DNA from: Bolinopsis microptera
Lineage: Eukaryota; Ctenophora; Tentaculata; Lobata; Bolinopsidae
DNA length: 64,000 nt
Direction of reading: 5' to 3'
Assembly: GCF_026151205.1 (NCBI RefSeq)
Contig: NC_087075.1
Coordinates: 8,235,303 to 8,299,302, forward strand
Shown: positions 1,034 through 57,900 of the stretch, piece after piece
How positions within the stretch are numbered: the first letter of the stretch is position 1
Layout of the letters: each line of letters starts with the position of its first letter
Notes under the pieces: model-generated
Database searches by the model: none
Told to the model about the DNA's origin: nothing
The model's input: the letters and a program-made list of their open reading frames with translations, nothing else
Translations under genes and position numbers: made by a program

Positions 1034-2011
1034 TTACTTCTTACCTCGAAATATCCTAGTAGAGACATGATGAGTAACGCTATCTACAACAGTTGAACGC
1101 CCATTTAGCTGAAACCACAAGAACTCTCTAAAGCTCAGAACCGTCAGACAGTAAATGTAAAAGTTGCTGATGGTATTAAAAGAGAGGCACACCCCTGATA
1201 ATCTCAAGAAGTCTGTGTGGAAGAAACCTTGGCGGTCAGGGTAATTTGACTCTGCTATACGGTATATAGCATAAGGTAGGATTGATATACAGTACATGAT
1301 AGCCGTGAACACTGCGGTCATCATTCCCTGCCACCGCTGGGTCCCTCCACATTTCTTGGAATGTTTTCTGGATTTTATGAGGTGGAAAAGCAGTACGACA
1401 GTAACTAATATTACTATGAGATTAGGAATTACCATGAAGGTGAAAAATTGGATGGGTTTTAGTAACTCCCATCGCTTGGACGAGAAATGATAACTGCACA
1501 CACTAGTTCTACAGTCAAACCGGACATCTTTACTGTCCACAATAAGGAATATCGCAGGAACAGCCAGAGACAGAATCCAGAGGAACGCACAGCAAAAATT
1601 AGCTTTTCCTCTGGAGAGAGCACTACTGCGTAGAGGACGCTTCACTATGATGAGCTTACTAGATGTGAGAGCACAGATAAAGAGAAGACCTGCCAGACTG
1701 AAATAGTAGGTCCCATACGCGGTGAAGAAACACAGAGCATCACCCAGCATCCATCCATCCGCTACCATCGCTATAAACTTAGGGAGCACGTAGACGATCG
1801 AAACCATGAGGTCACTCACAGCTATGTGATGGATAACAGATGTTATAAAAGGATGCAGTTTGAGAGCTCTGTACTTGACACTGGCTACCAGGATGATAGT
1901 GTCCCCGATGAAGGAGGAGAGGAGCACGAAGAGGTAGTAGCTAGCCAGGGCGTATCTTTTAGAAGTTTCTATACCAAACTGGGATTTGTCGGAGTATTCT
2001 GATGGAGACAT
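1034..2011 (-). CDS. Class A (rhodopsin-like) GPCR, intronless
   Basis: A single uninterrupted frame encodes 325 residues with seven hydrophobic segments. TM1 lies at about 22-46 (with GD where the family has GN), TM2 at about 58-80, and TM3 follows a Cys-containing loop at about 93. Extracellular loop 2 carries Cys residues that could pair with that TM3 Cys. TM6 contains an ILPY motif in place of the usual CWxP, and TM7 ends NFYIY in place of NPxxY, followed by SFRE and a helix-8-like stretch. The DRY box at the end of TM3 reads SKL. The length and topology are normal for a small peptide or amine receptor without a long N-terminus, so it should act in the plasma membrane. The ligand cannot be told from sequence. 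Intronless GPCRs of this type are common in cnidarians (general knowledge). The first ATG is used because the frame is hydrophilic before TM1. A CACGTG E-box lies about 20-25 bases upstream of the ATG. Confidence 0.85.
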   Translation of the reverse strand: MSPSEYSDKSQFGIETSKRYALASYYLFVLLSSFIGDTIILVASVKYRALKLHPFITSVIHHIAVSDLMVSIVYVLPKFIAMVADGWMLGDALCFFTAYGTYYFSLAGLLFICALTSSKLIIVKRPLRSSALSRGKANFCCAFLWILSLAVPAIFLIVDSKDVRFDCRTSVCSYHFSSKRWELLKPIQFFTFMVIPNLIVILVTVVLLFHLIKSRKHSKKCGGTQRWQGMMTAVFTAIMYCISILPYAIYRIAESNYPDRQGFFHTDFLRLSGVCLSFNTISNFYIYCLTVLSFREFLWFQLNGRSTVVDSVTHHVSTRIFRGKK

Positions 2012-19864: not shown

Positions 19865-22800
19865 GCGCGGTCCCCCTCTTAACTTACGTTAAAGAGTCCA
19901 GTATCAAGTCCTGCAATGAACTGCATGTCTTGAATACAAGAAGCGCTGATAGTGAAGAGGTAGTAATGTTTAGTTCCCAGTCTGACCGGTTCTCCTTTAT
20001 CCACTGCATACACCGTTATCACGTACTCCACCTGTAGAAGGAGTTGGTGTTAAAAAAAACTGTGTTGGTGACTATGATAATGAATGATAATTCCTATACC
20101 CGAGAAAAGCATTTTTCCTTTGTCGCAAGTTATACGGAATTACAGAAATATTCATCGGAAACATAATGATAATGGCTTGCATTGACCTTTGGTAATAAGT
20201 GACTACTATAGTGACTACTATTATAGTGACTACTAAAGTGCTATGTAACCTCCAGTGGTTCAGTCAAGACAGTGAAGCTGAAGGGTGAACTTACCATGAA
20301 TTTCTCGTAAGTGAAGTAGTCGTCAACAGTTCGGTACTTCTCATATTCCATCTCGTTCAGGTTCAGTACTTCGTACCCTCCTGTTAAATAGAACGAATCA
20401 ACTTTCTGGTGTTTTAACCTATTGTTTGTTGGAGGAACTTAATCTTGATTTAATAAGTTAATGTAAAATTGATGTTTTAACAAAAGGCAAAAGTCATATA
20501 TATCAAACTGTGGTTCAGCTAAGTTGTTACTAAAGTTAATGAAAATCTTAACAAATTATCAAGAGAAGACACATACCAATGTAGTACTGGACAGCTTTAT
20601 TAGGACCATTGTCAGCATCAGTCACATTTAACAGTGTGCCCCGCAGATCTAAACACAACTCAGTTCTATCAATAAGAGTCTCTGCATCGTCTTTAAAATC
20701 AGGGCAGTTGTCATTTGCATCTTCCACATTTATCCTGATCCTGATTGGAGTTACAAAGTCACGTGTGTCCTCCCCTTCAAACTCATAGTGCACCTCCAAG
20801 TACAGGTGTACAAACTTCTCTTCAATACTCTCGTAGTCTATAGCATTCTTCAGTATAACAAGAGCTGTGGGAGTCTCAATGGTTGAGGAATGTGCAGGAG
20901 TGACAACAGGGACAGTGACCACTGCCTCACTACAATTGTAGAACTCAGGGACACCAGATCCAGGGTCCTGGTTAGCAGGGTGAGGGTCCGGGTCTTGTTT
21001 CCAAACAAACTCACTGTCGTGTACCTCAAAGTTATCGTTATCAGACCCTGTGCTGACTATGTCGACTTCGTATGTTTGCAGTCCGAGGACGGTTGTGAAG
21101 TCGAGAGTGTCAATCTTTCCTGATCGTATTTTCCTTTCTGACATAGTAAATGCAGCGTAGTTACTTGACTCAATAACTTGAAATTGGGAGAGTCTCAAGA
21201 ATAGCTGGGATGAAAGGGAGCGTCTCTGAGTTGTGAAGATGTCAACATACATCTCATCAGAAAGAGTGAACATTCCCGCCTCAACATCAGTCTCTTCGAC
21301 ACCCAAATTACAGCGTCCCACCTGGGTCTCATCCCTGACCTTGTCAATAAACCCGTATTTTGCTACAAACTTGTTTGCACCACGCTTAAAAGAGATCTCT
21401 CCGCAAGGAAGATCGGACTTGTCCTCCTCTTCAGCCAACACCTCCAAAACAAGTGTACCGTTCATGAACACCCATACATCATCAGGACCTCCTATACTCA
21501 ACACCTCGTCACCTGTCAGCAACACGGCTAGTCTCAGTCGGGCGGTGAAATACATGTTGTGCCGCTTGAAGTTAGCGGTAGTGTCAGTGGGTGGGTTTAC
21601 TAACTCATCTACTGGCCACCACTGCCGCGCGAACATGCAGTCAGAGTTAGCTCCAAACCCTGGGCAGCTTTGAAGGTGAAATTCCTCCTGGAGGATGTCT
21701 TTGATGTTTGAATTTGGAGTGAACCACTGGGTGATGGTGTCAGCAGCGCTAAATTTATCGGTCATGTAAAGATATGGGCCAATACTGGGGGAATCAAACA
21801 TTTTGGGGTTCCGGTATATCTTGTCATATCCCATATTTTGGAAGTCTTCAAAATCGTTTGTCAGATCGAAGTATGTGGCCTGAAATGTGGTGGTCTGTTT
21901 GGGTTGAGGTATTTTTTCTGTCTTCTTCAGTTCCTCTTGGTATCCGACCCTCCATGCTCCAACAGACGAATACTTGCCAGCTGCACCAGGTATTTCTATC
22001 TTCACCGCGCAGAATATGAAATCAGCCGTTGAAAAGTCTATATCCTCACTGTGACTAAACTCTTTGTCACAACTATCAGTCTTCGCCAGTTCCACGTTGA
22101 AGGGACTGGTAGTCAGGAATATGTTCCCTGTATTACTATTGATCCCCTGCTGCTTACACTCCATTATAACGGTAGCCTGGTTAATACACCCACTAGATGC
22201 TCTATCTTCACAACAGTAAACTGTCTCAGCTTTGTTCCAAACGGCTGTTTCTGGGAATTTCCAGTGCATTGTAAGAGTTTCCTGGGTGGGAAGCTGGTCT
22301 TCAAATGTTCGTGATACCCTGACCAGGCTGGTAGAGTAGACTTCACACTGGAGCTTCTTCTTCACGCTATTAGGAGAGGTGTCGCTCAGTGTCAACTGCA
22401 GCTCGTTTCCGTTATCCACATGGGTGTACGTACATTTTTTGGGTCCTTTGAATTTGATTGTTGTTCCTTGTATGGCATTGATATTTGTTATGACCTGCAT
22501 GAGATTGCAGGTGCACTCACTGACCCCATAAACAAGCACGTCTTTAGCATTCTTTTTCACGTTCTCATACAAGGTTCCGTCGATGAAAGCACCTTGACTA
22601 TCGTCCGCAACAACTGTACCCTTATCACTTCCTGCAAGTTTCTGGATCCCAACAGTATGAAAAGCTTTGTTGTCAGCCACGTTGAGAACATCGAGATTAG
22701 CTGTGTTGACAAGATTGTCTGGTATTTGTGGTAGACGGTTTTTGTTCAGCCACAATTCCTTCAATTTACTCGCAAACGTGTCCATAGCACCTGCCTCGAT

Positions 22801-25545
22801 CTTTACTATTAAGTTATCATTGAGCTGGAGATTTTTAATGGAAGTGGCTTTTCGGAACGCATCAGTAACTACATGCGTGATAAGGTTGTTTCTAAAGTTG
22901 AATTTTCCTTGGCAATTCGGCAACGAATCTGTGTCAATAAAGTCTATTTCGTTGTTATCTATGTTGAAGTTCTCACAGCTTTTAATCTCCTCAAACGCTC
23001 CTAAGGGTAGTTTCCTGATTTTGTTTTCGTTGAATTGGATATATTGGATGTATTCCGCATTAACAGCTCTCTTTGCAACATACTTAAGAGGTCCATTATT
23101 GAATTGAAGAGTCCAGTGTAAGTAGATTTCATTGAATGAGTGGGTCTCAATAAGTTCTATCTTTCCGTCATTAAGTAAGATATAATCAAGTTTGACGTTG
23201 TTGAAGGTGTTAGATCGCAATGTGTAAAGGGTAGTTATCTTCTCAAGATGAAGCCCCGCATGGTTTGTCAAACCTTTACCCTTTGTCTCTGAGGTAATAT
23301 CAGTAAAACTGTACGGTTCTAAGTTAGATACTGGATTGTTTATGAGCATAACCCCAAAAATATCATTACTTTTCCCAGTGTAGGACAAGTTTAAGTTTTG
23401 AAAAGCATATTTCTCTACATCTGAAATGTGATTTTCTTCAAAGTCTGCTTTCTGAAATTTGCTGTGATCTTTAAACATCCCTGTCCGGATTACTTCAAAT
23501 TTGTTTTTGACAAATTCGGCATAGAACTCCTCAGTTTGGGAAGAAAACGATCCATCTTGAGGCCAATCGTGAAGGTCATTTTCTTTCATGCGGACTTCTT
23601 TCATACTTTTAGATGCAAAGGTTCCAAATTCCACAAATGCAAGTGAGTTCCTTTCCATATTCAAAATTTCTATCTGATCACATACCGTGCTAAATGCACC
23701 ATTATCAATCCAATTGATATTGTTGTCAGAGAGATAGATGTCTTTCAATTTAGGACTGTTCTTAAAAGCATTTAATGGTATGTAGCTGATCCTGTTATTT
23801 CGAAAATCAATGTTATATAAGTCAGGCATGTTGTTGAACTGGTTTTCATCGACAAAATCAAACTCATTGTTGGATAAATCTATGAGAGTAAGACTTCTAG
23901 GAAGGGCATCATCCTCTATGGCTAGTATCTTATTGTTCTCAAGGTAAAGCTTGTTTGTCATGTCAAGATTTAGTAGAGTTCCTTTTTTGAGATAAGTCAG
24001 CAAATTCTTGTTCATTCGCAGTATATTCAAAGATTTGACCTTGAAAAGAGCCTTTGGAACTTCCAAGAGAAAGTTATCATTCAAGTACAATGTTTGCAAC
24101 CTCATGTCAACAAATGCTTCATCTTCAATGGTGTGCAGTCGATTTTTGGAGAGTTCAAGAAAGGAAGCTGTTGTCTTTAAACAATCCAATACTCCATTTG
24201 GAATGACTGTAAGTAAATTGCTACTGAAATCAAGACTGTCAAGCTTTACCATCTGGCTAAAGCTGACAGATAACGGGTAAACATCTTTAAATCGGAACTC
24301 TAAAATGCTTGTTACATCATTCAAGGCATTTTCAGTTAATTCCGAAAGTGATGTTATTACGTTATTCTTCATCCAAAGCTTTTCAACTTTCGAAAAATTT
24401 GCATAAATGAAGGAAGCATGAGGAAAGCTCCTAAGACAGTTTGAGGACATATCAATGTACTTCACTGTAGCAATGTTGTTGAAAGCTCTGTAATCGATGT
24501 TTTCAAGCTTGCTATTACCCAAAATATCTAGAACTTTTAAAACCGCCAGATCCTTGAAAGCATTCCCTTGTATGGTATGTAGATAAGGATTTTCTGACAC
24601 AGTAACATAAGCAAGCTTCTTGCCACTACTGATTGAAAAAGGTTCCAACTCTGTCAAGTTGTTGTACCCAAGCTCTAGAAACCTCAAGGTCTCACATTCA
24701 CCCATCCACTCAGGTTCAATCTGATTAATTTTGTTATCAGTAAGGTTTAAATGAACCAGTTCATTCATCTCTTTGAATGGCAAGGCAGGCAAAAGCTTTA
24801 TTTCATTGCGTTCCAGTCCAATGTACTGAATCGTTTTTCTGATCGAGAAGACTGCTCGAGGGATGTGTCCTAGACTATTTTTTCCAAGGGTAAGCCTGAC
24901 AAGTTTATCCAAACCTTCGAAAGCATTATCTGCAATGAATGAAATATCATTGCATGCAAGGTTCAGTCTTTCTAGGTTTGGCATGTGAACAAAAGAAAGG
25001 CCGCTGACGCGGTTGACGTTGTTATTAAAAATTGCCATCTGTGTCAGTTTATGTAAAGGAGTGGAGACGTTCAATGCAGATGTTATCCCTGTACTGACAA
25101 CAACGATCTCCTTAAGATTGGGGAACTTCTCAAATAATTCTGGTTGAATCTGTTCAAGCTTTGGGGCATTAACGATATGAAGTGTGGTGGTTTTGGTCAC
25201 AGGATTAGGGATGGTTGAGGTGTCGATTTCGATAACACCATTCCCTGTTATAACAACTTTAACTCCTGGTGACTTGAATGATGCAACACTTCCAATGATT
25301 TCGCAGCCAACGCATTTCTTATCGAATTCTTGTTTGAAGTATTCGCACTCTCCTTTTTTCTCCACAAAGCAAGAGAAAAGATTCAAGGTAACATCAGAGA
25401 GATGCGCTATTTCGTCAGTATCCCAAAACAAATTGTACTTTGGATCAAACTTATTTTTAATGACATCTTTCATAGGAGCAAACTTTGCATTTGTTTTGAC
25501 CACTAAAATGGAACACATTGTAATCATCAGGGAAGTAGTTGCCAT
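11564..25545 (-). CDS. Secreted LRR / fibro-slime / cadherin / EGF / TSP3 matrix protein, 16 exons
   Basis: Joining minus-strand exons 25545-20577, 20380-20295, 20031-19888, 19614-19502, 19191-19077, 18851-18694, 18383-18262, 17545-17463, 17293-17209, 16180-16029, 15771-15678, 15389-15314, 14492-14377, 14158-13998, 12165-11994 and 11763-11564 gives 6,846 nt. That is exactly 2,282 codons including the stop, and all junctions are GT-AG and in phase. Order: signal peptide (1-20), Cys-containing N-cap, roughly 30 LRRs (about 115-955), Cys-rich linker, fibro-slime domain (about 1220-1400, with GGPDDVWVFMNG), cadherin repeats (DANDN near 1607), GCC2/GCC3-like Cys modules, EGF modules and TSP type 3 repeats. 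No transmembrane segment is seen, so it is probably extracellular matrix or a secreted adhesion protein. LRRs and fibro-slime bind ligand or glycan, and cadherin and TSP3 bind Ca2+ (family knowledge). The combined architecture is unfamiliar to me. The last exon is the least certain. Confidence 0.85.
11570..11665. repeat. 30-bp tandem repeat (3 copies) in terminal exon
   Basis: Three copies of a 30-bp unit containing GTACCTGTACAAGCAGGCAA lie in this stretch. Read on the minus strand it is in frame and codes a 10-residue repeat at the C-terminus of the matrix protein. Each unit also contains ACAG followed by GTACAT, a weak donor. Confidence 0.9.
12166..13997 (-). other. Intron 14 of matrix gene
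   Basis: The flanking exons join in phase 0 inside a TSP3 repeat (NTDQ to EDLDND), so no exon is required here. Several CACGTG motifs occur (12210-12225, 12674-12700). The minus-strand frame at 13193-13381 has no splice-consistent role. Confidence 0.6.
14165..14535. repeat. Cluster of TGACGTCACGTG motifs
   Basis: TGACGTCACGTG or close variants occur about six times, spaced irregularly (14188-14370 and 14505-14535), on both sides of exon 13. Each combines a CRE-like TGACGTCA with an E-box CACGTG. It may be a decayed minisatellite rather than a regulatory element. Confidence 0.7.
14377..16180 (-). CDS. Exons 10-13 of matrix gene: EGF / EGF-Ca modules
   Basis: Exons 16180-16029, 15771-15678, 15389-15314 and 14492-14377. 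Two Ca-binding EGF openings are seen: VDIDECERFSPC and DIDECATDNGNC. SCPAGFEDSEGGC and CDSCPTGYTGNAPQG resemble the EGF region of thrombospondins. For exon 11 the acceptor CCAAG, giving VPGFKCDSC, is chosen because it keeps phase 0; the nearer CCAG would break the frame. Exon 12 lacks some Cys residues of a full EGF and is completed by exon 13 (CGYCFGQYVGNG). Confidence 0.8.
14661..14794. repeat. 22-bp minisatellite (6 copies), intron 12
   Basis: The unit begins CAGACTAATAGTTGAGACTA and is repeated six times without visible change. Confidence 0.95.
15101..15300. repeat. 20-bp minisatellite (10 copies), beside donor of exon 12
   Basis: The unit ACTAACAGCAGCTACAGGTA is repeated ten times with no visible change. 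It ends 13 bases from the exon 12 donor (GTAAGT at 15313 downward), so it occupies the first 200 bases of the intron. Confidence 0.95.
15790..17190. repeat. Palindromic GTTACCATGGTAAC minisatellite, intron 9
   Basis: Units of about 24 bp with core GTTACCATGGTAAC or GTTACCATGGCAAC plus TTAGTTAG spacers fill 16200-16522 and 16897-17190. More degenerate units lie at 15830-15930. A SINE interrupts the array at 16523-16887. The core fits the X-box consensus bound by RFX factors (GTNRCC-RGYAAC type, family knowledge). Confidence 0.9.
16523..16887 (-). mobile_element. tRNA-derived SINE (about 365 bp)
   Basis: Read on the minus strand it starts with a tRNA-like head (about 16887-16815). The A box is TAGCGCAGTTGG and the B box GAGTTCGAAACC. 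The anticodon loop CTTACAA would read as tRNA-Val(TAC). A body of about 280 bp follows and ends in a run of 12-15 A (T on the plus strand, 16523-16537). The copy of AACACG at each side (16517-16522 and 16891-16896) is a plausible target duplication. It is inserted in the palindromic minisatellite. Confidence 0.8.
17209..19614 (-). CDS. Exons 4-9 of matrix gene: Cys-rich GCC2/GCC3 (ephrin-receptor-like) modules
   Basis: Exons 19614-19502, 19191-19077, 18851-18694, 18383-18262, 17545-17463 and 17293-17209. Motifs include GYCDTCTLGYRCPGYG, STCSPCKPGWEC, CPSGQFSNAGSSRC, SFCPPGEF and CDYCPENE. The CPxGxFSNxGSSxCxxCPPG pattern is that of GCC2/GCC3 or ephrin-receptor-like domains (family knowledge). 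Exon 5 contains an acidic DLGLPREEEDCENKS insert. Exon 6 has an acidic EREEGEEVG stretch. The donor of exon 7 lies in a 37-bp tandem array and that of exon 4 directly beside an 11-bp array. Confidence 0.8.
17779..18283. repeat. 37-bp minisatellite (about 13.6 copies) carrying the exon 7 donor
   Basis: A 37-bp unit including CTCTATCTAGCGCAAACTCT is repeated without visible change. On the minus strand each unit contains GATAGAG followed by GTTAGTG, the exact end and 5' splice site of exon 7. The array begins inside the last 22 bases of that exon and continues through the intron. Confidence 0.95.
19352..19490. repeat. 11-bp minisatellite (about 12 copies) beside donor of exon 4
   Basis: The unit ACCACTCACAT is repeated about 12 times and ends 11 bases from the donor of exon 4 (19501 downward). 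The Thr/His-rich frames across it are repeat artefacts. Confidence 0.95.
19825..19860. repeat. Poly-C tract
   Basis: About 33 bases of almost pure C lie shortly downstream of the exon 3 donor (minus strand). The length is unreliable in any assembly. Confidence 0.8.
19888..20380 (-). CDS. Exons 2-3 of matrix gene: second cadherin repeat
   Basis: Exon 2 (20380-20295) begins GGYEVLNLNEM once joined to exon 1 and ends YEKFM. Exon 3 (20031-19888) gives VEYVITVYAVDKGEPVRLG. This is the A-x-D-x-G-x-P strand pattern of cadherin repeats, with the preceding DADNG in exon 1. Donors are GTAAGT for both exons; acceptors end AACAG and TACAG. Only two cadherin-type repeats are visible. Confidence 0.85.
20577..25545 (-). 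CDS. Exon 1 of matrix gene: signal peptide, LRR array, fibro-slime, first cadherin repeat
   Basis: One 4,969-nt exon holds 1,656 of about 2,281 residues. The start gives a good secretion signal with hydrophobic MITMCSILVV followed by KTNA. LRRs follow the 24-residue LxxLxLxxNxI pattern almost without a break, including a region with extra Phe and Tyr at about 680-780. After the LRRs there is a Cys-rich block (CTCNLMQV, YCCEDRA, CINQ). The fibro-slime domain has the hallmark DDVWVFMNG near residue 1356. The cadherin segment ends RINVEDANDNCPDF. The donor is ATTG followed by GTATGT (20576 downward), so the last few residues of the open frame (MCLLLIIC) are intron, not protein. Such a large exon in an otherwise finely split gene suggests that the LRR part was acquired or retained as a unit. 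Confidence 0.9.
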
Positions 25546-26699: not shown

Positions 26700-29085
26700 T
26701 TTTACCATAAGTATATTGAGGTGTAGTAAAGTGATTTTCACATCCACCCTTGACAAGCACTGTAAATTAGAAGTACCGAAAACGACCAAAAGAACACCAA
26801 AGCTCAATCCTTGGATTACAGATGGAATCATCCTCTCAATCGACATGAGCTTTGTAAAGAATGGTCAGATACAGTAACAAATAAAGATCCATCTGGCAAT
26901 GTCCTTCTTTATAAGATATTTAGTGACTATCGTAGGATGCTTAAGGGTATCATAAAGGCAGCCAAACGCTCCTATTACTGTAACGAAATCTATAAAAACA
27001 TTGAAAGCAGTAAGAAAACTTGGCAGATAATAAATGAGCTTAGGGGCAAAAGAAAGAAAACAACCAAACCACCTTTTATCATCAATAATGAAAGAATCTT
27101 GAACCGGAGAGCAATTGCCAATGGTTTTAATTCCTGGTTCGTATCAATTGCTCCCAAGCTCAATGAAACTATCACAACTGACTTGTCTTCTGGTATTCCA
27201 ATTCTCCCCATGAAAACATTCCATGACTTCCTTAGCCCTAGTAACTCTCGATCTATTATGTTAGAGGACAGCACTCCTGAGGAGGTTCTAAGAATAATCA
27301 AAGAATTCGAGAATGGAAAGGCCAGTGATATTCCCATAACCGTTATTAAAACTTCGTCCCACGTTATTGCACCAATTATCAGCAGATACTTAAACAAACT
27401 TATGTCAAATGGTATATTCCCTGATATACTTAAGACTGGCAGAATCACACCCGTATTCAAAAAAGGTAATCCAGAAGAAATAGAAAACTACCGTCCTATA
27501 TCCACCTTGTCCATATTTGGCAAAATATTTGAGAAAATCATATATTCTAGGATTTATTCGTTTGTCAGCTCTCAGGGAATAATATCTAAGACTCAGTTTG
27601 GTTTCAGGCAATCGCACTCAACCTCCCATGCAGTAAACTACTCTGTTGACCTCATATCTAAGCACATCAAATTGAAGCACCATGTGTTAGGCATATTCAT
27701 CGACCTCAGCAAAGCTTTCGATACTATAGATCACTCAACATTACTTACCAAACTAGAAAGGTATGGCATCCGTGGCGTGGCAAACGATCTGATCAAGAGC
27801 TACCTAACTAATCGATTCCAGTACACTGATGTTGTAGGAGAAAAGTCCGACCTACTTCCAATAAAATTTGGGGTTCCCCAGGGGTCAATTCTCGGACCCC
27901 TTTTATTCCTACTTTACATAAATGATATCTCTAATAGCTCTAGCTTGGGATCGTTTGTCACCTTTGCGGATGACACCAACATATTTGTTGTTGGTAAAAC
28001 TGCACAAGAAGCATATGAACGCAGCAACGCCCTTCTTTCAAACCTTCAAACATACATGCGGGCTAACAAGCTTCACATAAACATGTCAAAATGCTGCTAC
28101 ATTCACTTTAGACCTAAGTCACGTACTGAAGCAAACGTTGAAGAAGAATTCATAATGAATATAGACAACTACCCCATCAAAAGAGTAACGTCAGCTAGAT
28201 TTTTAGGAGTCGTCATTGACGAAAATCTAACATGGGAAGAACATATAATAGCCCTAAAACGAAAGCTTAACCATGCCACCTCAACTCTGTGTCGTCTACG
28301 CTGCTCCCTCCCAGAATTTCTCCACAGACAGTTATACTACACTCTTTTTGAATCCCATCTGTCGTACTGCATATCAGCATGGGGTGGGGCAGCTAAAAAT
28401 CGTATAAGCTCAATATTCACTGCACAGAAGTACTGTCTGAGGGTCTTGTTTGGTGATAGAGCAGCCTACCTGGATAAATTCAAAACGTGTGTTCGAACCA
28501 GACCATTTACTGACCAGAAACTTGATAGTAAATTTTATAAAAAGGAGCACACTAAACCTCTGTTTAAAAACAACGAGATACTCACTGTACAAAATCTTTA
28601 TACTTACCATAGCTACATAGAATTATTCAAGATCATGAAGTTTTCTACTCCTATGTCTATGTACGAAGAGTATTCTCTTTCTTCCAGGAAACCAATGCTT
28701 ATTATCAATAAACCGGATCCCCCAGACAACCATAACACGAGGTCAACGAAAATATGGAATATAATAACCCCTAACCTTAAAATCTTTGATTGTTCTGTTA
28801 GTATTTCTTGCCTGAAATCCAAACTGAAATCTTCACTACTTTCCAACCAGCATTGTCATGCCGTGTATGACTGGACAAATAAAGACTTTGATATATGTAA
28901 CCTTAAATTTTCGTAGGCTCCTGCAGGGATTCCACCTGACCTCCAAAATTTCATGACCAAATCGACTTACTCTGCCAGCGTATTCCTCTGTCAAGTTAAA
29001 TGTGATGTGTGAGTGAGTAAGTGTAGTGTAAAGATATCCTATTTTTGTATCCAATTTGAATTCTAATAAAGACCCTAAGCATTAT
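26700..29085 (+). mobile_element. 5'-truncated non-LTR retrotransposon (LINE), jockey/CR1-like group
   Basis: It contains a nearly complete reverse transcriptase frame and a 3' region ending near AATTCTAATAAAGACCCTAA. The N-terminal endonuclease is missing. Recognisable protein homology begins at about 26730 (KRTPKLNPWITDG, the usual linker before RT). The clade cannot be fixed by eye; the RT looks like the jockey/CR1/Rex side of LINEs. No clear target duplication was found. Confidence 0.85.
26811..28916 (+). CDS. LINE reverse transcriptase (ORF2 fragment)
   Basis: A 701-codon frame has the RT motifs in order: ENYRPISTLSIFGKIFEK (block 2, about residue 228), QFGFRQSHST (262), GIFIDLSKAFDTIDH (about 295, catalytic Asp), GVPQGSILGPLLFLLYIND (about 355), FADDTNIF (catalytic DD, about 386), and a C-terminal thumb with LHINMSKC and FLGVVIDENLTW. 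A Cys/His-containing tail region follows. Upstream, NPWITDGI lies in the neighbouring frame (26653-26877), so one frameshift at about 26840-26860 separates the linker from this frame. The catalytic core itself is uninterrupted, suggesting a fairly young insertion. Confidence 0.9.
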   Translation: MDYRWNHPLNRHELCKEWSDTVTNKDPSGNVLLYKIFSDYRRMLKGIIKAAKRSYYCNEIYKNIESSKKTWQIINELRGKRKKTTKPPFIINNERILNRRAIANGFNSWFVSIAPKLNETITTDLSSGIPILPMKTFHDFLSPSNSRSIMLEDSTPEEVLRIIKEFENGKASDIPITVIKTSSHVIAPIISRYLNKLMSNGIFPDILKTGRITPVFKKGNPEEIENYRPISTLSIFGKIFEKIIYSRIYSFVSSQGIISKTQFGFRQSHSTSHAVNYSVDLISKHIKLKHHVLGIFIDLSKAFDTIDHSTLLTKLERYGIRGVANDLIKSYLTNRFQYTDVVGEKSDLLPIKFGVPQGSILGPLLFLLYINDISNSSSLGSFVTFADDTNIFVVGKTAQEAYERSNALLSNLQTYMRANKLHINMSKCCYIHFRPKSRTEANVEEEFIMNIDNYPIKRVTSARFLGVVIDENLTWEEHIIALKRKLNHATSTLCRLRCSLPEFLHRQLYYTLFESHLSYCISAWGGAAKNRISSIFTAQKYCLRVLFGDRAAYLDKFKTCVRTRPFTDQKLDSKFYKKEHTKPLFKNNEILTVQNLYTYHSYIELFKIMKFSTPMSMYEEYSLSSRKPMLIINKPDPPDNHNTRSTKIWNIITPNLKIFDCSVSISCLKSKLKSSLLSNQHCHAVYDWTNKDFDICNLKFS

Positions 29086-32836: not shown

Positions 32837-34963
32837 ATGTTCCTCTTGTTGATCGTCGTAATCGTCTTTCCTGCTGCTGCCTCTGATGATAAGCAGTACA
32901 CTGCTCTTCACTTTGGTACCTCCAGTAATGATTATATTAGATTTAATTTTAATATGGCCCCGTTTCAAGACTCCTTCTCCATCTGTACTTGGATGAAACG
33001 TGTAGACACCACTGCTTCTCACCCAGCAGTGTTTCAGTACTATGCAAGTAGCTTTGAGATCCGGATAACTTCTAATGGCATTTACAACCAAGTAGTAGCA
33101 GATACAGATTTGAACGGTAAGCAGAGTGCGTTCACAACACCTGTTGGGAGCTGGTTTAACTACTGTATTACTTGGTCACTCGCCTCGAGGAGCAGCAAGC
33201 TGTATCTGGATGGCAATTTGATAGGCACAGGTACAACAGACTCTGGAAGAACACTGAACATGGGAGGATTTCTGTTCTTCAATAGGCATTCTTATACTAC
33301 AAGTTCTAGTTCCATATTCGGAGGCCAGCTCTATCAGTTTAACATATTCACTGAGGCACTCAGCTCGGCCGATGTAAAGAAAATAGCAGAAGGTGGGCTG
33401 TGTATGGACCTTAAAGAATTCTCTGGAACTAGGGCTTTGCGATGGGAACACATTCTGTCCCAATCGAGGAGCGGATCTGTGAGCGAGTTTATGATAGGAT
33501 CTGTGAGCGAGTTTATGATGTGTGAGTGGAAGAAGGAACTAGAAACTCAGTTGAGAGCGTCAGAAGAGAAGTTGACAAATGTGACTGGTCTACTTAGCGG
33601 GACTGAGGAGAAACTGAATACCACTATTGAAGAGCTAGGAGCTGTGAGAGGTGAACTGAACTCTACTGAGGAGAAGCTAGACGTAGTCACCAGGGACCTC
33701 AACAAAACAGATGCTGCAATGGAGTCTGTAATGGGGCAACTGAATTCCACCCAGGAGGAGTTAGGGACAGTCAAAGGTAAACTTGAAAGAACGGAGCGCG
33801 AGCTGGAAACAAATTCAGCTCATCACAACAAGACAGGCGAGGAGCTAGACACCTGCTCAACTTCCCTAACAAGCACAATGACCCAGCTGGAGACCGCCAG
33901 GACATTCAAGAATATCACCAGGTGGGATATCCTATACACCACTCCCTACTACAACAAGGTGCTGACGGAGGAACTGTTCCAGCAACTGTCTTCCAGTTGG
34001 GGAATTTTGGGTAAGCGTAAACTTACTTTATTTTTATCAGTGATTACATCGACCCCTGAACATGTGTATGACAATTAAATGTGCATTCTTATTTACTTTT
34101 GATATCGGAGTAAACTGTAAAATGTATAACTTGCTTTATAATTGGACGTAATTTGACCAGACATTGCCGTTGCAGCAGACTTTGATGTTCTGTAAACGGA
34201 AAACTTTATTTGAACGGAGAGGTTCAGATATAAATGCTAAGGCTTCTAGCGTCCGTTCAGATAAAGTCCAATAAAGTGTAATGACTAAAATTTCAAAGCA
34301 TGATGACTAATATTATAAGACTTCATGTTCAGACTTCAAATTTTCAGACTTCAAATTTTCAGACTTCAAATTTTCAGGGAAGTTTGTAGGTGTGAATATA
34401 ACTGATGGTGTTGTCGACCACTTCCGCCAGTACCATCAAGAACCAGTTTGTGACGCCTTCGAGCAAATCTCATACCAAATGCTTAGTAAGTTATACTTAT
34501 CTGAAACTGGAAAATGGCCATTTGGGCTGATACCAGCATCCAGGGGTATTTGCTTATTACTTTATTAATTACAAATTGACAAAACCTTCTTTACTAACTT
34601 AATATATAATTAAACAATACAGTTGCCGTTTGTCCTCACTTGGTTAAATTAATATTACGCAAGACCATATTGATATATGATATAATAATATCGAAAGTTA
34701 ATTCGATAATTCTCAAGGGTTCCTTAATATTTCCCTTTAATTTGTATAGACCAAATCAGCATGTTGATTTAAATATATCAATGTACATTGTACGTGCGAA
34801 GTTGACTTTTAGTTTTAACGGCCCAAAAATTACAATAACTTTTTTCCTAGGACAGTTTGTAGGAGTTGAATGGACTACGGGGATAGCCGATCACTTTCGA
34901 GACACTCACTTGGTGAGTCGTGAAGACTCGCCATGTGAGACTGAGAGCGATACGGAGAGCTAA
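32837..34963 (+). CDS. Secreted LamG/pentraxin-like protein with glycosylated coiled coil, 3 exons
   Basis: Exons 32837-34010, 34378-34485 and 34851-34963 join in phase (1,395 nt, 464 residues). A signal peptide (1-16, LLLIVVIVFPAAA) leads into a concanavalin A-like LamG/pentraxin fold (about 20-190). Its landmarks are FSICTWMKR, WFNYCITWS, LYLDG and GGQLYQFNIF, the usual pattern of this family. Residues 205-224 include an in-frame duplication (GSVSEFMI/GSVSEFMM). A coiled coil follows (about 230-350) with repeated LNSTEEKL-like units, most bearing N-glycosylation sequons. The C-terminus has two related short exons, GKFVGVNITDGVVDHFR and RQFVGVEWTTGIADHFR. It is probably an oligomeric secreted lectin-like protein. 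The large open frame continues past the donor (TTGG then GTAAGC), but its last 22 or so residues (from KRKLTLFL) are intron. A poly(A) signal AATAAA lies near 35044. Confidence 0.85.
34324..34377 (+). repeat. 15-bp tandem repeat carrying the exon 2 acceptor (3 copies)
   Basis: Three copies of ACTTCAAATTTTCAG end directly at the 3' splice site of exon 2 of the LamG gene. Each unit ends TTTTCAG, so there are up to four consecutive usable AG acceptors at 15-base spacing. Confidence 0.9.
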
Positions 34964-48991: not shown

Positions 48992-51900
48992 TTTTAAGCA
49001 GTCATCAAATTCCTTAATTCCCATATGGCAAATGATGAGGAAACATAAATCCATCAGATTCCTCAAATCAGAGTGATCAAATAAAACTAAAAGGGTGCTT
49101 TTCCGTGGCCTTCCAGAGAATTTCATGATGTAACTTGTCTACAATAGCCAGCGAATAAGGACTCAGCACATACGGTCGATCGCCCAATGTGTCAACAAAT
49201 TGTAACTGTACTCTACTCAACCAAATCTGGGATAATTTTAAAACTCGCAGTACAGACATTTACCATGCTTTTACCAGCCAGTGATAAGCCTCGATACATA
49301 TAAAAAATTTTAAAACAACCGGAATAATATATTAGCGCACTTGTGCTTCATCATTTCAACAGGTTCTGTTTGTTATTGACTAGAAACACAGAAAGTTGGT
49401 CTTCATGCACTCACCACTCCAAACCCTAGAACGCATTAACAGATGATAATAATGTTTAAAACTCCTGTTTCTATCTAGCTGGAATTGTCAAGCCTTGAAG
49501 CCTGTGTAGCAAATCATAAGGGCGGTATAAGTCTACGTGACAGACGTTTTCTTGTGCCGCGCAGCTCAGCCGGCAGATAAGGGTTGTTTAACATCGCAGT
49601 CATGCTTCATTAAGAGCAAATATATAACCTTCCCGCTCAAGTGACAGATAAAGTCGGAGATTACACCGTCTGTCAAAATTAAGCTTGTCTGTTTTTTGTC
49701 TAAAAGTATCAATACAATGCAGGAAAGAGACAGTTAAAGAGTTTATAGTACTTAATGTGAGGTCGGAAGGACTTCGTGGTAATCCCTACAATTCGGGATA
49801 AAAACTGGAATTCAAAAATAGAACCGATGTGTCTCAAGCGGGCAGTGAAATAATTCAACGTCAAATTAGTGTCATGGTGAAAAGATTCCCGCGTCACTTA
49901 GACCATCAAGCGATCAGAAATCGGAAATCAAATCATCCTGTTTAGGATATTTTCTCGTGTTTTTCAGGAAATATTTTATGTTTACCTGGTCGCTCATAAC
50001 TGGTGGTATCGGGGGTCTGAGGCTCGTCAAATGTATCGTGGTATTCTGGTTTAATAGCGCTGGAGCACATGACTGGAGTAGTGCTTGAACAGCTGCTGTC
50101 CGCCTTCGGGAGAGAAATGTTAGTTTTCAGCAGAGCAATATTGGTGTTTCAATCAAAAAGTTGTTCAATAACACTGTAGACTTTGTATGAAATATATCGT
50201 CATTGAATTCAATTAATAAATCCGACCTCATGGTTGAACCAATATTGATAGCTCCACCAGAATATCATCTGTTTAACTATTAAATGTTAACGGAAGAATT
50301 CCAGAAACCCAACCCCGTCAAATTATAATTAATCTTGGTCAAAATGTCTCATCACGTGGCCATATTGTCGCATGAAAGGCAATTGTCTGGCCTATCAAAA
50401 TTTGAGAAGTTGCTGTAAAAAGCTGTGAGGTGGCAAGCTAAGCATTTTGTTAAGCACAAGCTTCTTACACAAGTTTATAACCAGTGTTCGTGTAAACAAA
50501 TATTTTATCTGCTTGTTTCGAAAATTCTGGACAAAATCGAATCTAAAATTTTTAATGCATCGGATACACTTATATCTCACATGCCGGTCCTATACAGGAG
50601 TATTAAAACTTTTGTGTCTGCATTTTGAAGTGTAGACAAAGTTTAATAATCTTGCAAAACAGAGGAAGAGGATATTCTAAATAAATAAATAGTCGAGTTT
50701 AAAACTTAAGCCCTACAAATTTTAAAACTCCCACGTAAGTAAGCTAAACAGTTAAAAAGTTGGAAAGTAGGAAGGTCTCTGACGGCAATTGCAAGCCAGC
50801 CGCAATTTAACTTATAACAAGGCGTTGATTATTATCCGCGGTTTAAAACATGACCATCTGGTTGCACATGCGGACAGGAGTTATTTTATTCGGTGCTGCA
50901 AAGTTGCGGAACCGGATCCTTAAATGTTGATTTCGTAAGATATCAGCACCCCTTGACTACACATCTTACACCGCAGCATGAAATCTCGTTATCAAGAAGT
51001 ATTTGACACCCATTTAACTGCCAACCTAGCAGCTGCTTCACTGATATAAGACTGTGCTAGTGCAACCAAAATCAGTCCTCTCAAACGGCCAGACTACTGA
51101 TAAAAATGACATGTGCAATGTTCTGTTCATCACAATACCTCTTGTCATACTAGACCCTGATGAAATGCTGCAATTCACCTACCAAACTACAGCTATAAGC
51201 ATCTTATCGAGCTGGCTCTGGAACTCACCATCAGATTATTTGATTGCTGCCGTTTTAATGCCGAAAGTTTCCGCTCGTTTGCCATTGTCTGAGCCATGCT
51301 TTTGTTACGCATCTGGGTTGCTGAGCAGAGGTCACACAAACAGTGTTCGTAAGGACATGACCCTTTGTGACCGATTCGGTAGTTTGTCTGAAATAAGATG
51401 ACCCATTGTGACCAAACTGTCAAGCTTTGGTGAAAGTACATGGAGTGGAAGTCATACTCCGGCTGATACATGTTGCTCATCACTGATGCTGTTTTGCCAG
51501 GAATAAGGTTCACTTTCACTTTTTTGGAAGAAGTTCTGGCTACACAATCACTAAACTCCGTTGCTGATTAAAATACGGTCGTCTGAGAATATCACCAAAT
51601 GCTCCAGGTACAAGAGCTTTATTTGAACCCTCCCGAGGGATAATGATTCGGTGCTTCGCTCGTTTACATTTACCACATAATTTTTTGGAGACTCTTGCTA
51701 TTTACTCGTTTTTAGCCGAATCCTAACAAAGCAAAATATGTGGCATATGTAAAATAAGTGACCAGCGCAGTACCACACACATACCGCGCTAGTGCCGCAA
51801 ATATAGCGCAATACCGCAAGGGTGTCACATATATTCTAGAGGCTGTGAACTTGTTCACGAGGTCCTCAATGTTTGTTTAGGACGCTTCGTTCATTCACAC

Positions 51901-54900
51901 TGCAATTCTAGGGACTTCGAACCGAGAGGTTTTCAGATTCTTGTCTGCCAGTGCCATGAGTCACATGATTAAGGGCAAAATCACAGGACACGGCTATAAG
52001 TCTCACTTGCTGATCTATACCCTCTCCGAAATTACCAAGTTTTTGCCATCACCAGCTAATTAGCACCCATATAATTGCCAGCAATTATACTATGGGAATC
52101 TCAAATTTGGCATGGCTGAAGTATCAATGACAGCTGTTATACCCCTGAGGTACGCTGCAGTCAACAATTACAGTGGTACAACTCATTAGCAGTGCGACTC
52201 ATTAGTCCAACTTGGTTCTTAGAATAGCCCACATCTGCCTTCGATCGAGATGCAACTTGAGTAACCGAGTGGTAAATAATGCAAGCTCGAAAACTTTCCA
52301 TTAGGGTGCATTAGCTTATGCTTCGTCGGATTCAAACCGCAGGAATATTTTTCAACAACCTTACCTAATACACCCAAACATCAACGAAACAACTTATAAT
52401 TGTCACATCCAGATATTATCATATTCATAACTTATTCATAACTTATTCATAACTTATTCATAACTTATTCATAACTTATTCATAACTTATTCATAACTTA
52501 TTCATATCATATTGACTCACTTCAGCAAATCCTGGCATGTGTTTCGGGATGGTAGACTTCCGTTCATTTGACATACACTTAGCCATGCTATCGTTGCGCA
52601 TTTTGATGGCGTGACATTGGGGGCATTTGCAGCTGAGGTACTCACAGTTTTGAGAGTGACCTTTCCTATACACAATCTGAAATAGTTTAACACGTGCTTA
52701 AGGTGAATAAAAACACGTGCTCCAATACGGTTATACATATCAGGAACGTGCTTTCACTGTACGATTGAAAATCAATATGCACGAGTGAGATATGATTGTG
52801 TGTGCTTGTTTGCACTTTTAATAAGAGCTATTATAATTTGGGATAATTATGCTTGATGTGCACAGCTGCTATAGAATTCAGATAGATTTGCTGAAATAAG
52901 AAAATGCACAGAGCGTTGTGGGTTATGTTTGGTGATAAAATGTATGAATTTAATAAAACATCGTATTGAATATTTGTAACTGGGCGCAGACAGCTAGCAT
53001 TTGTTCCGCCCAGCATACGTTTAAAAACTCATCCATTAAAACTTCATACAAGATCCAAACCTCATTACATGACAAATTTAAAATAACCTTTAAAAGGTTA
53101 GGTCTATTTAAAACTTTTTAAAACCACCAACCTTTCCGTGGTTTTTACATCTCGCGCACGTAGGCTTGCTTTTCACCGTCGGTTTGGGAGCTTTCTGTGC
53201 GTCTTTAGTGAGCATCGCGGGTATGTGGGATATTGTGACTTTGTCTACTGCAAAACAGGGAGATTTAGAAAAGATTTAGAGGATGTTATGAGGGAACAAA
53301 GGGAAAATCTTAGAAAAATTGAAGGGCATAAGGTTCAATTAAAGAGTCTATGGATTGGAGTAAATTACTGATAAAAATGTGGCTAAGAGCATTAGAGCAT
53401 ATCGAGGTTGTTTAAGTTTTAAGATTTTATATTTAAGAAATACAATATTTAAAATCAAAGAACTGCAATGAACTGTTAAAAAGGAAAACACTCGCTTGTC
53501 TGTCAAATTTTAAACGATTTTAAAGAAAGACGTTGGAATGCCACAAAATACGTGACGTTACTTTCCCTGTATTCTGTAACATGATGAATCACAATTCCGA
53601 TTCAAATACTTTAGTGTACAAGTGTATAAACAGTTCGACATATTGACTTATTGTCTTGAATACGTGGATTGAAGAGAGAAAACAATGAGTTGCACTTGTT
53701 GAGGGTTGAATCCATATTACTCGTTAACACTTAACTTAGGGATACTCAAATTTCCCGCATGTCGGCACACACAAAAACAGTCTTGATATGGCCGCCATTG
53801 CGGTACACCGTACACGAATCTTAATCCTTGCCATCGATCTTTTACGAAACGTAAGAAATTATAAGTTCAGTAAATAGGAGGTAAAAGATTACCCAGACGG
53901 AAACTGACCTATATCCATCTTCACATTTACTGTGCGGAATGAAAGCAAACACCAGCAAGCGAAGAAAAAAGAATCCCGTCTCCAGGTCACCGTAATGCGT
54001 TTACCAGAGCAGAAAATTTTATGCTCATACATAATTTCAGCATATTTTAGACCAATGAGGGAAGAGGTTGAGGAGAGGCCGACCAATTGGCGATCTCTGC
54101 TCAGGCATGCTGAGCCTCCTTCCTGACGTTCGTGAATCATACTGTAATTTTCCCTGCTCGTCAAATCCCCTTCTCCCGATATGAACTATTGATATGTGGA
54201 TCTCAGTCGGCAGCACGGCAGCTGCTTCATGTCAACTTCATGTACAGCATATTATTCTGGGACAATTTCTTGGGAAACATAATGTGTTTTAGGAACAAGT
54301 CATACTTGCAAAATGGCAAAAAGTTGTTGACTTGTTGGTCGGGTAATAACTTTGCGGAGTGGAAATGACGCTGGTGTGTCTAGACAGGGGACTGTTTCAC
54401 CCGGACCGTCATCTTAATCGTGCATTTGTGCCGTTTAATTATCCAGTTCTGACACCCCGGACAGGATTTAACGATGGTGTCACGGTTTGTTCATGGATTG
54501 CCAACTAGACATGTTAGGCGGTGAGCCTCGTACAGGTTCAGGAGAGTGAGCACCATTATTTCCCTGTTGAAGATGTGCTGCGAATGTATTGAGGAAAACA
54601 TAACGTATGATGCGGACTTTTTACAGTGTACCCATTGGAGATTCGCACGCGTGTGGTAGGACCGGACGTTGGGATCAGCCGATGATTGAAACGAAAATTA
54701 GTAAGACCAAACCCTAAGACAATTAACTTTTTCACTTCGATTTTGACTGCTGGGCACCAACTGATACCATGCGAGAAGTCTTGAAGTGTCCAAGATTTTG
54801 ACGCTCTTATTTGTACCGAAAGTGACTAATGTTGCTCCTTAGGTTCCAGAGTTATAGGATTGTTTGCCAACTGTTGCAACCTGTACTTCATAAATGGGCA

Positions 54901-57900
54901 ATTTGTCCACTGCTAATGCTATGCATATTCTACAGAAGATTTCCAACTAATTTTCATCACTCTCCGGATATTCCCCGTCAATAAAATAACGTGGTACACA
55001 CGTGACCACGTTAACCTGGTGTTGATTGGACTTGTAGGATCTCCGAAACCTTACCCAATGCATTTTGAATGAATTTTAAAACTGTTTCAAACGCAGACGG
55101 TCGGTCCGAGTTGACACTATGTGTTCCATTTAGTGGAGATCGGTAAAGTGGTTGATGATTCAGAATGGTAACTTTATAAAGGAGCACTTTGGTCATTCCC
55201 TCATACCCGGGGATAACTGACAATTGTTGATGGATCGAAACCCTTGCGGTGACTGGTAGATGATAAACGTCGTTATCAAAGCTCTCGTGTAATAATTGAC
55301 AGTTCACGGTTACTTGCGCCCGTCTTAGGTAGGGACGGCTATCAAAAATGTCACCAAATAAATATATTACACATGACTGATTTCAGAATCCTGGTATTTT
55401 CACAGTACGTAGGCATATGTGCAGCTGTGGGATGGAAAGTTATACTCAGGAGGAACTACTGAGAAGGATTAACTTTGGTCTGCGAAAAGGAAACTTGTGG
55501 TTTTCTTACGGTTCCAGGGCTAATTTGAAGACTGGTGATATCTGATAGTCTGTTTTCCGGACTTTTGGAATTTTTCAACAGTTTCACGCCAGTTATAGGT
55601 ATGTGATCTAATGTAATGGTTCTTGGGTCATGCAATTTACATCGTGTAGGCTTCAGCTTGGCAAGACCAATGTCCCTGGCGATGACATTTTGCTGTGATG
55701 GAACCCGACAGAAACTTGGTTATTTGGAACAAAATTCCAAATGATATTTAATGCAATTTGAAAACAGTTACTGTAATATATACCGTAAAATCATAGTCAA
55801 AGAATCATTTTGATAAATATGAGTTCAGTCTTCATTAGAGGATGATGCAAGACTCACTTAATACCGGGTACTCGGAGTTCACCCCACACCGTTTGAAGTG
55901 GACGTGAAATGTGCGGAAACTTAGGGAGAGTCGATATTTAAATGTTTGGTTGACTATGAGAAATAATGTTTTAAAGGAGTCCCCTGCATGTCAGATGTGG
56001 TATGAGAAATACACCTTGGCTTCACTAGGTTGGTGCTGATGTTTTTAAAGTAGGTTAAATCGCACAGAAATCTAATCATCTTTTTGTTGTTACTGATAGT
56101 TTGCTTTAAATTTAGTATCAAGAGCACCAGATCACTGCCCGTATAAATGATCTTATAGGTAAATATAAAGACCTCGAGTATTTATCAAAAGTTCAGCAAA
56201 CGACACGAATTTTAACCTTGATTCCCACAAAAGTTAAACTAATTGTTTTACGGAGTTACAATGATAGTTTAACTCTGGATTAAAATTGGTATGATAACAG
56301 GACGTGACGCCCAGACCCAACACTTACTCTAACAGTAACTCTAGCCCTAACCCTAACTGTAGCCCTAACCCTAACCCTAACTGTAGCCCTAACCCTAACC
56401 CTAACTGTAGCCCTAACCCTAACCCTAACTCTAACTCTAACTCTAGCCCTAACCATAACCCTAACTGTAGCCCTAACCCTAACCCTAACTGTAGCCCTAA
56501 CCCTAACCCTAACTGTAGCCCTAACCATAACCCTAACTGTAGCCGTAACCCTAACCCTAAGTCTAACTCTAACTCTATACTAGCCCTAACCTTAACTCTA
56601 ACTGTAGCCGTGACCTTAACCATAACCCTAACAGTAACCCTCATCCTAACTCTAACCCTAACTCAGTTATAACTGGGACCCTAACTCTAACCGTAACTCC
56701 AACCCTAAGTTCCTTACCATAACCCTTATCCTGACCTTACTCTAATTAAAAATCTAATCGTTTACGGATTACAGAGGGAGTAAATAATCGATTTTCCGAT
56801 ATTTTTACCAAGAATCCTGAATGTAACCAATTTTTGACCTGAAGGTGTCACAGATCGAATTAACAGTGAAATAAATCACGCTTAAAAAACATTTTTGGAT
56901 ATATTTGAACTAATAATCTGGCCGGATATTGTATTTAACTGAGTATGTAACGGGGAAATACCTCAAAAGTAAAGATTTTCATTTATAAATACTTCGGCAC
57001 GGGCGAGGTCTCGTTACGAACGCATGAAGTCTACTTGCCTACTCCTTATTATTGACGATAATCTCTGTATCTTGGCAGAAATGAGAATAAATTAAATCAG
57101 TTGAATTATTATCCCATTTACAATTAGATTATATCCTTAGATCGCTATGAGATCCTATTCAACTTGCGGATTGACATTAAAAACATTAACTTTGATATAG
57201 TATTTTGACAGTTCAACGATATAAGGTTTGCTAACAATGACGTAAATATTGTCGATATTTTTTTAAAGATTATTATAAAATACAACTCAAATTTCAACGA
57301 ATTTTGATTTCTTCGAATACAATTTTAACCGACAGGATAAAAGCACGTATTAGTTACCAAAGAAACAATATACGGCCGTTTTTACGACCTGATCATTCGC
57401 CATTTCCAATAACTTTCCACCAGCCGTTGTCAGAAATTACATCAGGTGGTAAACTTTATGTCGACCTTATATTACGTCGTCGTAGAACTTAAATGTCGAT
57501 AGTCCGATTTCTCAAATATTCATTAACAGAGCGTTTTGATCGACATTATAATTAGAAAATATTGAGCTACAAAACACACGTGAAGAGGCTCGGAAACAAT
57601 TTATGCTACCTTTAAAAGGTTTCAAATTATATATTACATAATGATGTAGGAAGAATCGTAATTCAGTGAGTTTCAGGAATATTCTACAAAGCGGAAGTAA
57701 CTTGAAACACGTCTACCCGGACTTCGGGATACGTCTACCCAATCCCGGTTAACCACAACAATAATTACAGGTTATGAATTGAAGAAACTTAATGAAATTT
57801 TGAAAAAATTAGACCGGGCATAATTTGGTTTCTATTCTGTTTAATTTTGGCGGCCTTTTCCCTGATACATCATAGGTACATGCACGTTGAAGACTATCTG

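What the first reader, a model, noticed from the sequence alone, without database searches (positions are those of the whole stretch)
51229..53247. Two alternative exons for the second half of one DM DNA-binding domain
Exon 2 ends NHGK at phase 0. Both downstream exons start at phase 0 with an acceptor and end at phase 0 with GTGAGT. Each rebuilds a complete zinc module with the normal NHG-xxxxx-GH spacing. The recognition tails differ (DSMAKCMSNERK versus KSMAQTMANERKLSALKRQQ). One gene could thus encode two DNA-binding specificities by mutually exclusive splicing. I know of no DMRT described this way, but could not search. Inclusion of both exons in tandem would also stay in frame and would give a domain with an extra half-module.
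Basis: partly seen in the sequence, partly recalled or inferred. Interest (0 to 1): 0.85.

Follow-up and report, generated by a model that had tools for sequence, protein, structure and literature searches.

The report
Comb-jelly Dmrt gene with swappable half-domain
A gene, very probably from a comb jelly, for a DM-type transcription factor carries two alternative versions of the second half of its DNA-binding domain, an arrangement already reported with transcripts in the comb jelly Mnemiopsis, so it is a real but not a new phenomenon.

Summary
On the minus strand, one exon carries the first half of a DM domain (three zinc ligands). Two tandem downstream exons, 156 and 159 nt and both phase 0, each supply the other five ligands at correct spacing. 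Both hit Pfam DM above its cut-off, and the four joinings tested into a candidate next exon stay open. Assembly size, two contig lengths and window GC fit the published figures of the ctenophore Bolinopsis microptera.

The claim of novelty does not hold. Mnemiopsis leidyi MlDmrtB has the same anatomy (PMC4971632, 2016): shared first half in exon 2, alternative second halves in exons 3 and 4. RACE products and assembled transcripts there held one or the other; none with both was found. The window is most likely the Bolinopsis counterpart, though no Mnemiopsis sequence was available to align.

The two exons are anciently diverged duplicates (21 of 39 residues shared, silent sites saturated). They group with one paralogous gene against other DM genes. 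Both keep the DMRT1 R111 and R123 positions; only the downstream exon keeps a backbone-contacting lysine, so 'two specificities' could equally be one strong and one weak binder. Exclusion is untested in this species; reading frame does not enforce it.

The parts
53132..53247 (-). Exon 2: shared first half of the DM domain (zinc ligands of CARC and the H of NHG), ends NHGK at phase 0, donor AAG|GTTGGT; an in-frame ATG starts at 53215 (true start unknown)
   Evidence: Pfam DM positions 2-13, E 0.002, 18.4 bits, below the cut-off of 27 as a fragment would be
52521..52676 (-).
   Evidence: Pfam DM 34.7 bits for window 52518-52676
51229..51387 (-).
   Evidence: Pfam DM 35.3 bits for window 51226-51390
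49986..50103 (-). Candidate common next exon, 118 nt, phase 0 in, phase 1 out, ADSSCSSTTPVMCSSAIKPEYHDTFDEPQTPDTTSYERP; acceptor is the less usual AAG
   Evidence: codon score of a sub-stretch 50072-49986, sequence read by eye, open joins; tentative, no transcript
52422..52506 (.). Perfect 11-bp tandem repeat (7.7 copies) beginning about 15 nt past the end of exon 3; its RNA is self-complementary
   Evidence: fold of 52380-52560 has z-score -3.75; function unknown

Best explanation
This is very probably a ctenophore Dmrt gene, the Bolinopsis microptera counterpart of Mnemiopsis MlDmrtB. An old tandem duplication of the exon encoding the second half of the DM domain produced a mutually exclusive exon pair. 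Exon 2 supplies C, C and H; exon 3 or exon 4 supplies H, C, C, C and C plus the recognition helix. Splicing one or the other yields two complete DM proteins that share their N-terminal half and, by inference, the downstream region. Shown here: anatomy, phase, ligand spacing, homology and antiquity of the pair. Shown in Mnemiopsis by others: the two transcript forms, with no form holding both found. Inferred: the same use in this species, and different DNA binding by the two proteins. The exon 4 form keeps the backbone lysine and should bind like an ordinary DM protein with a divergent helix. The exon 3 form, with serine there, should bind more weakly or differently.
For: DM hits for both exons above the Pfam cut-off. 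Acceptors of exons 2, 3 and 4 score in the top 2.4, 2.1 and 3.2% of local AGs, donors in the top 4.2, 0.8 and 0.1% of local GTs (the matrix was typed from recalled general consensus, not trained on this species). Same exon order and split as MlDmrtB, with transcripts. Assembly of 264.65 Mb with C1 26.21 Mb and C11 20.83 Mb, against B. microptera 265 Mb, largest chromosome 26.2 Mb, N50 20.8 Mb, GC 38.5% in Table 1 of PMC11797021; window GC 38.2%, nine other loci (89.6 kb) 39.9%. Exons 3 and 4 share 21 of 39 residues; identity at codon positions 1, 2, 3 is 23, 25, 16 of 39. Their synonymous distance is undefined (saturated) by NG86 while both frames stay open and keep the ligands. Exons 3, 4 and the C11 paralogue form one side of a 100/99 branch.
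Against: No transcript or splice-junction data for this species could be examined. No Mnemiopsis sequence was held, so orthology rests on anatomy, not alignment. The ten-exon structure was not reconstructed. Exon 3 sits on a long branch (2.25), so it may be less constrained. The exon 2 donor is the weakest of the three. The species is inferred from assembly statistics alone: I did not compute N50 or whole-genome GC, no marker gene was tested, and the scaffold number differs (232 here, 346 in the table).
Confidence: 0.87

Rival explanations
1. Exon 3 is a decaying duplicate (pseudo-exon), rarely or never spliced in this species; exon 4 is the working half.
For: Long branch for exon 3, loss of the backbone lysine (GHS instead of GHK).
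Against: The five zinc ligands, the R111- and R123-equivalent residues, an open frame and good splice sites are kept despite saturated silent divergence. Mnemiopsis makes transcripts with its exon 3.
Confidence: 0.06
2. Both exons are included together, giving a DM domain followed by an extra half-module, as in the reported exon duplication of Solea dmrt1.
For: 2-3-4-next is in frame without stops. Solea senegalensis dmrt1 cDNA is reported as I-II-III-II'-III'-IV-V with part of the DM domain repeated (PMC7605655, passages).
Against: No transcript with both exons was found for MlDmrtB by RACE or in assembled transcripts.
Confidence: 0.05
3. Both exons are used in alternation, but the isoforms do not differ in specificity: the choice alters dimer partners or affinity instead. 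(A rival on function only; compatible with the best explanation's anatomy and splicing.)
For: Vertebrate DMRT proteins selected similar sites despite recognition-helix differences, and some heterodimerise (PMC1931443, passages, some from the abstract). R111 and R123 equivalents are kept in both exons.
Against: The exons differ at 18 of 39 positions, including opposite charge at the R113 position, and DMRT1 R111G alters binding (PMC9713387, passages).
Confidence: 0.35

Closest known systems
MlDmrtB of Mnemiopsis leidyi (ML0273; PMC4971632, 2016)
   Same: First half of the DM domain in exon 2; alternative second halves in exons 3 and 4; two complete but different DM domains; the authors already propose divergent target motifs.
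   Different: Another species; here no transcripts seen, exon count not established, no sequence alignment possible with these tools. Mnemiopsis isoforms also differ in 3' UTR, not testable here.
dmrt1 of Solea senegalensis with intragenic duplication of exons II-III (PMC7605655, passages)
   Same: Duplication, within one gene, of an exon carrying part of the DM domain.
   Different: A fish gene; the reported cDNA carries both copies in series.
Doublesex sex-specific splicing in insects
   Same: A DM-family gene diversified by alternative splicing.
   Different: From my own knowledge, not a call: dsx splicing changes the C-terminal part, not the DM domain.
fruitless alternative zinc-finger exons in Drosophila (PMC3852243, search listing and start of abstract only)
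   Same: Isoforms of one transcription factor differ in their DNA-binding zinc fingers.
   Different: Carboxy-terminal zinc-finger domains of another family, not half of a DM domain.

Membership tests
DM domain (PF00751) | Profile match above the curated cut-off | tested here: met
   34.7 and 35.3 bits for the stretches with the two second-half exons, cut-off 27
DM domain (PF00751) | Eight zinc ligands in C-x2-C-x2-H ... H-x3-C-x4-C-x-C-x2-C order and spacing | tested here: met
   Exon 2 joined to either exon gives NHG-5-xGH and all eight; ligand assignment recalled from the DSX structure and agreeing with the C2H2C4 positions listed in PMC7605655
DM domain (PF00751) | Sequence-specific DNA binding | not testable with these tools
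   No assay; R111 and R123 equivalents kept in both, DSX K60 equivalent kept only in exon 4
Ctenophore DmrtB with alternative DM halves (MlDmrtB) | First half in one shared exon, two tandem homologous second-half exons | tested here: met
Ctenophore DmrtB with alternative DM halves (MlDmrtB) | Sequence orthology to MlDmrtB | not testable with these tools
   No Mnemiopsis genome or protein was available; look-ups in supplementary files are capped at 0
Ctenophore DmrtB with alternative DM halves (MlDmrtB) | Ten-exon gene | tested here: inconclusive
   Exons 2, 3, 4 and one candidate next exon located; other candidates weak
Ctenophore DmrtB with alternative DM halves (MlDmrtB) | Window comes from a ctenophore | tested here: inconclusive
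   Assembly size and two contig lengths fit B. microptera closely, scaffold number does not; strong but indirect, no marker gene tested
Mutually exclusive exons | Homologous exons of equal phase | tested here: met
   21 of 39 residues identical, both phase 0 to 0, 156 and 159 nt
Mutually exclusive exons | Transcripts contain one or the other, not both | not testable with these tools
   Published for Mnemiopsis only

The most novel reading that the evidence does not exclude
The half-domain switch is an ancient ctenophore device that pairs an ordinary DM binder (exon 4 form, lysine kept) with a lysine-less form (exon 3) that has altered specificity or acts mainly as a heterodimer partner, so one splice choice retunes a whole Dmrt target set in the tissue that expresses it (comb rows in Mnemiopsis). 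The duplication could be as old as the split from the C11 paralogue.
Probability: 0.25. Interest if true: 0.6.

Novelty: new member of a known kind. Interest (0 to 1): 0.35.

Why it matters
If the window is Bolinopsis, the alternative half-domain arrangement is found in a second comb-jelly genus, which makes it more likely to be maintained and functional than a quirk of one species. It gives a compact test of whether exon choice can rewire the binding of a DM transcription factor. The idea itself was already in print for Mnemiopsis.

Tried and rejected
Species guess of a nematode: SL1 RNA (RF00198) gave no match, but the control rang nowhere, so this shows nothing by itself; the assembly statistics then pointed to Bolinopsis. 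DMA domain: no match to PF03474 in the genome; the control rang nowhere, so absence is not shown. Comparison of 618 minus-strand reading-frame pieces of window 30001-64000 with 367 of the C11 locus (40 best rows printed): besides the DM exons, matches below 1e-4 lay only at window 41.4-41.7 kb, in several frames and so probably a shared repeat; the C11 paralogue did not help to find the other exons. Upstream exon 1: no convincing candidate. Splicing by RNA pairing: an inverted repeat joins the exon 3 donor to intron 2 (52511-52531 with 52885-52905), but perfect 11-base complements number 4 here against a mean of 3.8 in 50 resamples, so chance level. Exclusion by frame: rejected, since the four joinings tried stay open. 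Exclusion by too short a spacing: judged unlikely from coordinates, since 1133 bases separate exons 3 and 4. Extra copies: genome searches with each exon's protein each gave three matches, the two exons and the C11 locus (the tool scores only its best candidates); DNA of the exon 4 region gave one.

Full report
What is there. The gene runs on the minus strand. Exon 2 (53247-53132) ends PTCARCKNHGK at phase 0. The upstream alternative, exon 3 (52676-52521, 156 nt), and the downstream alternative, exon 4 (51387-51229, 159 nt), both begin after an ATTTCAG acceptor and end at GTGAGT. Stretches holding each exon score 34.7 and 35.3 bits against Pfam DM, cut-off 27; exon 2 alone matches positions 2-13 at 18.4 bits, as a fragment might. 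The second-half motif occurs twice in the window and twice in total in 100 first-order resamples of it. I infer a common next exon at 50103-49986, entering at phase 0; its acceptor is AAG and it lacks transcript support. The four joinings tried, 2-3-next, 2-4-next, 2-3-4-next and 2-next, stay open.

Where it comes from. The window lies in a 264,652,675-base assembly of 232 contigs in which C1 is 26,206,493 bases and C11 20,825,282. Table 1 of PMC11797021 (passages read) gives Bolinopsis microptera 265 Mb, largest chromosome 26.2 Mb, N50 20.8 Mb, GC 38.5%, 346 scaffolds. The window's GC is 38.2% and that of nine other loci, 89.6 kb, 39.9%. Size and these lengths fit; the scaffold number does not; I did not compute N50, the largest contig or GC of the whole genome, and tested no marker gene. 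I take the species to be Bolinopsis microptera with high but not complete confidence.

What is already known. PMC4971632 (section 13 in full, passages of the rest; [quoted passage not shown] The authors propose that the isoforms bind divergent motifs; expression was in the comb rows, and probes made from the two isoforms gave no distinction. The anatomy here is the same. Literature searches: 'MlDmrtB' gave only this paper; 'Bolinopsis' with 'Dmrt' gave 0 papers; 'ctenophore' with 'DM domain' and 'Dmrt' gave 7; 'ctenophore' with 'alternative splicing' and 'mutually exclusive exons' gave 1, on myosin; two wider searches for alternative DM exons gave 5 and 8. I opened only some of these. Solea dmrt1 (passages) is another within-gene duplication of part of a DM domain, with both copies in the reported cDNA.

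Relation of the two exons. They share 21 of 39 residues, with 23, 25 and 16 of 39 identities at codon positions 1, 2 and 3. Over 35 codons they share 19 residues, dN is 0.48 and the NG86 synonymous distance is undefined, that is, saturated. Exon 4 and the C11 gene share 21 of 35 (dN 0.34, dS undefined); exon 3 and C11 share 18 of 35 (dN 0.53, dS 2.2). In a tree of nine second halves, exons 3, 4 and C11 form one side of a 100/99 branch against C1 (two loci), C2, C3, DMRT1 and DSX; it is the only well-supported branch of six, order within the three is unresolved, and exon 3 has a long end branch of 2.25. So the duplication is old, and keeping the ligands and an open frame over that time argues that both have been used; the long branch is the main point against. 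The seven Pfam DM matches in the genome are six loci, this gene counting twice; no other locus had a second match. By my reading, five of the six have an intron in or beside the NHG...GH linker (for C2 judged from the acceptor only, as no first half was found in the 9,951 bases upstream).

What the difference could do. R123 of DMRT1 can be placed from the mutagenesis primer in PMC1931443 and R111 from the repair template in PMC9713387 (passages). Both arginines are kept in both exons. Between them the exons differ at the positions of R113 (Asp in exon 3, Lys in exon 4), A117 (Lys, Gln), Q118 (Cys, Thr) and A120 (Ser, Ala). PMC1931443 says DSX K60, proposed to bridge to the DNA backbone, is alanine in DMRT6, which selected no sites; DMRT6 also differs at six of 14 helix positions, so the lysine alone is not shown to be the cause. 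By the R91/R123 offset, K60 is the lysine after GH: exon 4 keeps it, exon 3 has serine. The exon 3 form may therefore bind weakly or differently. The same paper says DMRT proteins with different helices chose similar sites and that some heterodimerise, so different specificity is a hypothesis, not a result.

How the choice might be made. Frame does not enforce it, and the 1133 bases between the exons make steric exclusion unlikely. Complementary segments that could pair are at chance number. Simple splice-site scores, with a matrix typed from recalled general consensus, put the exon 2 donor lowest (4.2% of local GTs as good), then exon 3 (0.8%), then exon 4 (0.1%). An 11-bp perfect tandem repeat begins about 15 nt past exon 3 and folds on itself. 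None of this explains exclusion; regulation by splicing factors is the default inference.

Verdict.

Noticed in passing
window 52422-52506: Perfect 11-bp tandem repeat, 7.7 copies, just past the exon 3 donor; the stretch 52380-52560 folds with z -3.75 against shuffles. Perhaps length-variable.
   Followed up: partly
window 56329-56708: Degenerate array of TAACCC-like (telomere-type) units, about 380 bases inside the chromosome.
   Followed up: no
window 20548-25545: Uninterrupted 1665-aa minus-strand frame of leucine-rich repeats.
   Followed up: no
window 26811-28916: 701-aa frame with a reverse transcriptase domain, probably a retroelement.
   Followed up: no
window 1034-2011: Rhodopsin-family receptor-like frame, 325 aa, in one piece.
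   Followed up: no
window 32837-34078: 413-aa frame with a laminin-G-like (concanavalin A-like) domain.
   Followed up: no
L003 / L011 (C2:8.93 Mb): DM second half with open frame but no first-half motif found in the 9,951 bases upstream; long intron, divergent first half or a broken gene.
   Followed up: no
L016 (C11:12.213 Mb): Closest paralogue of the window gene in this genome, with a single second half found (RNDAMAKTMANER) and an intron in the linker at phase 2.
   Followed up: partly
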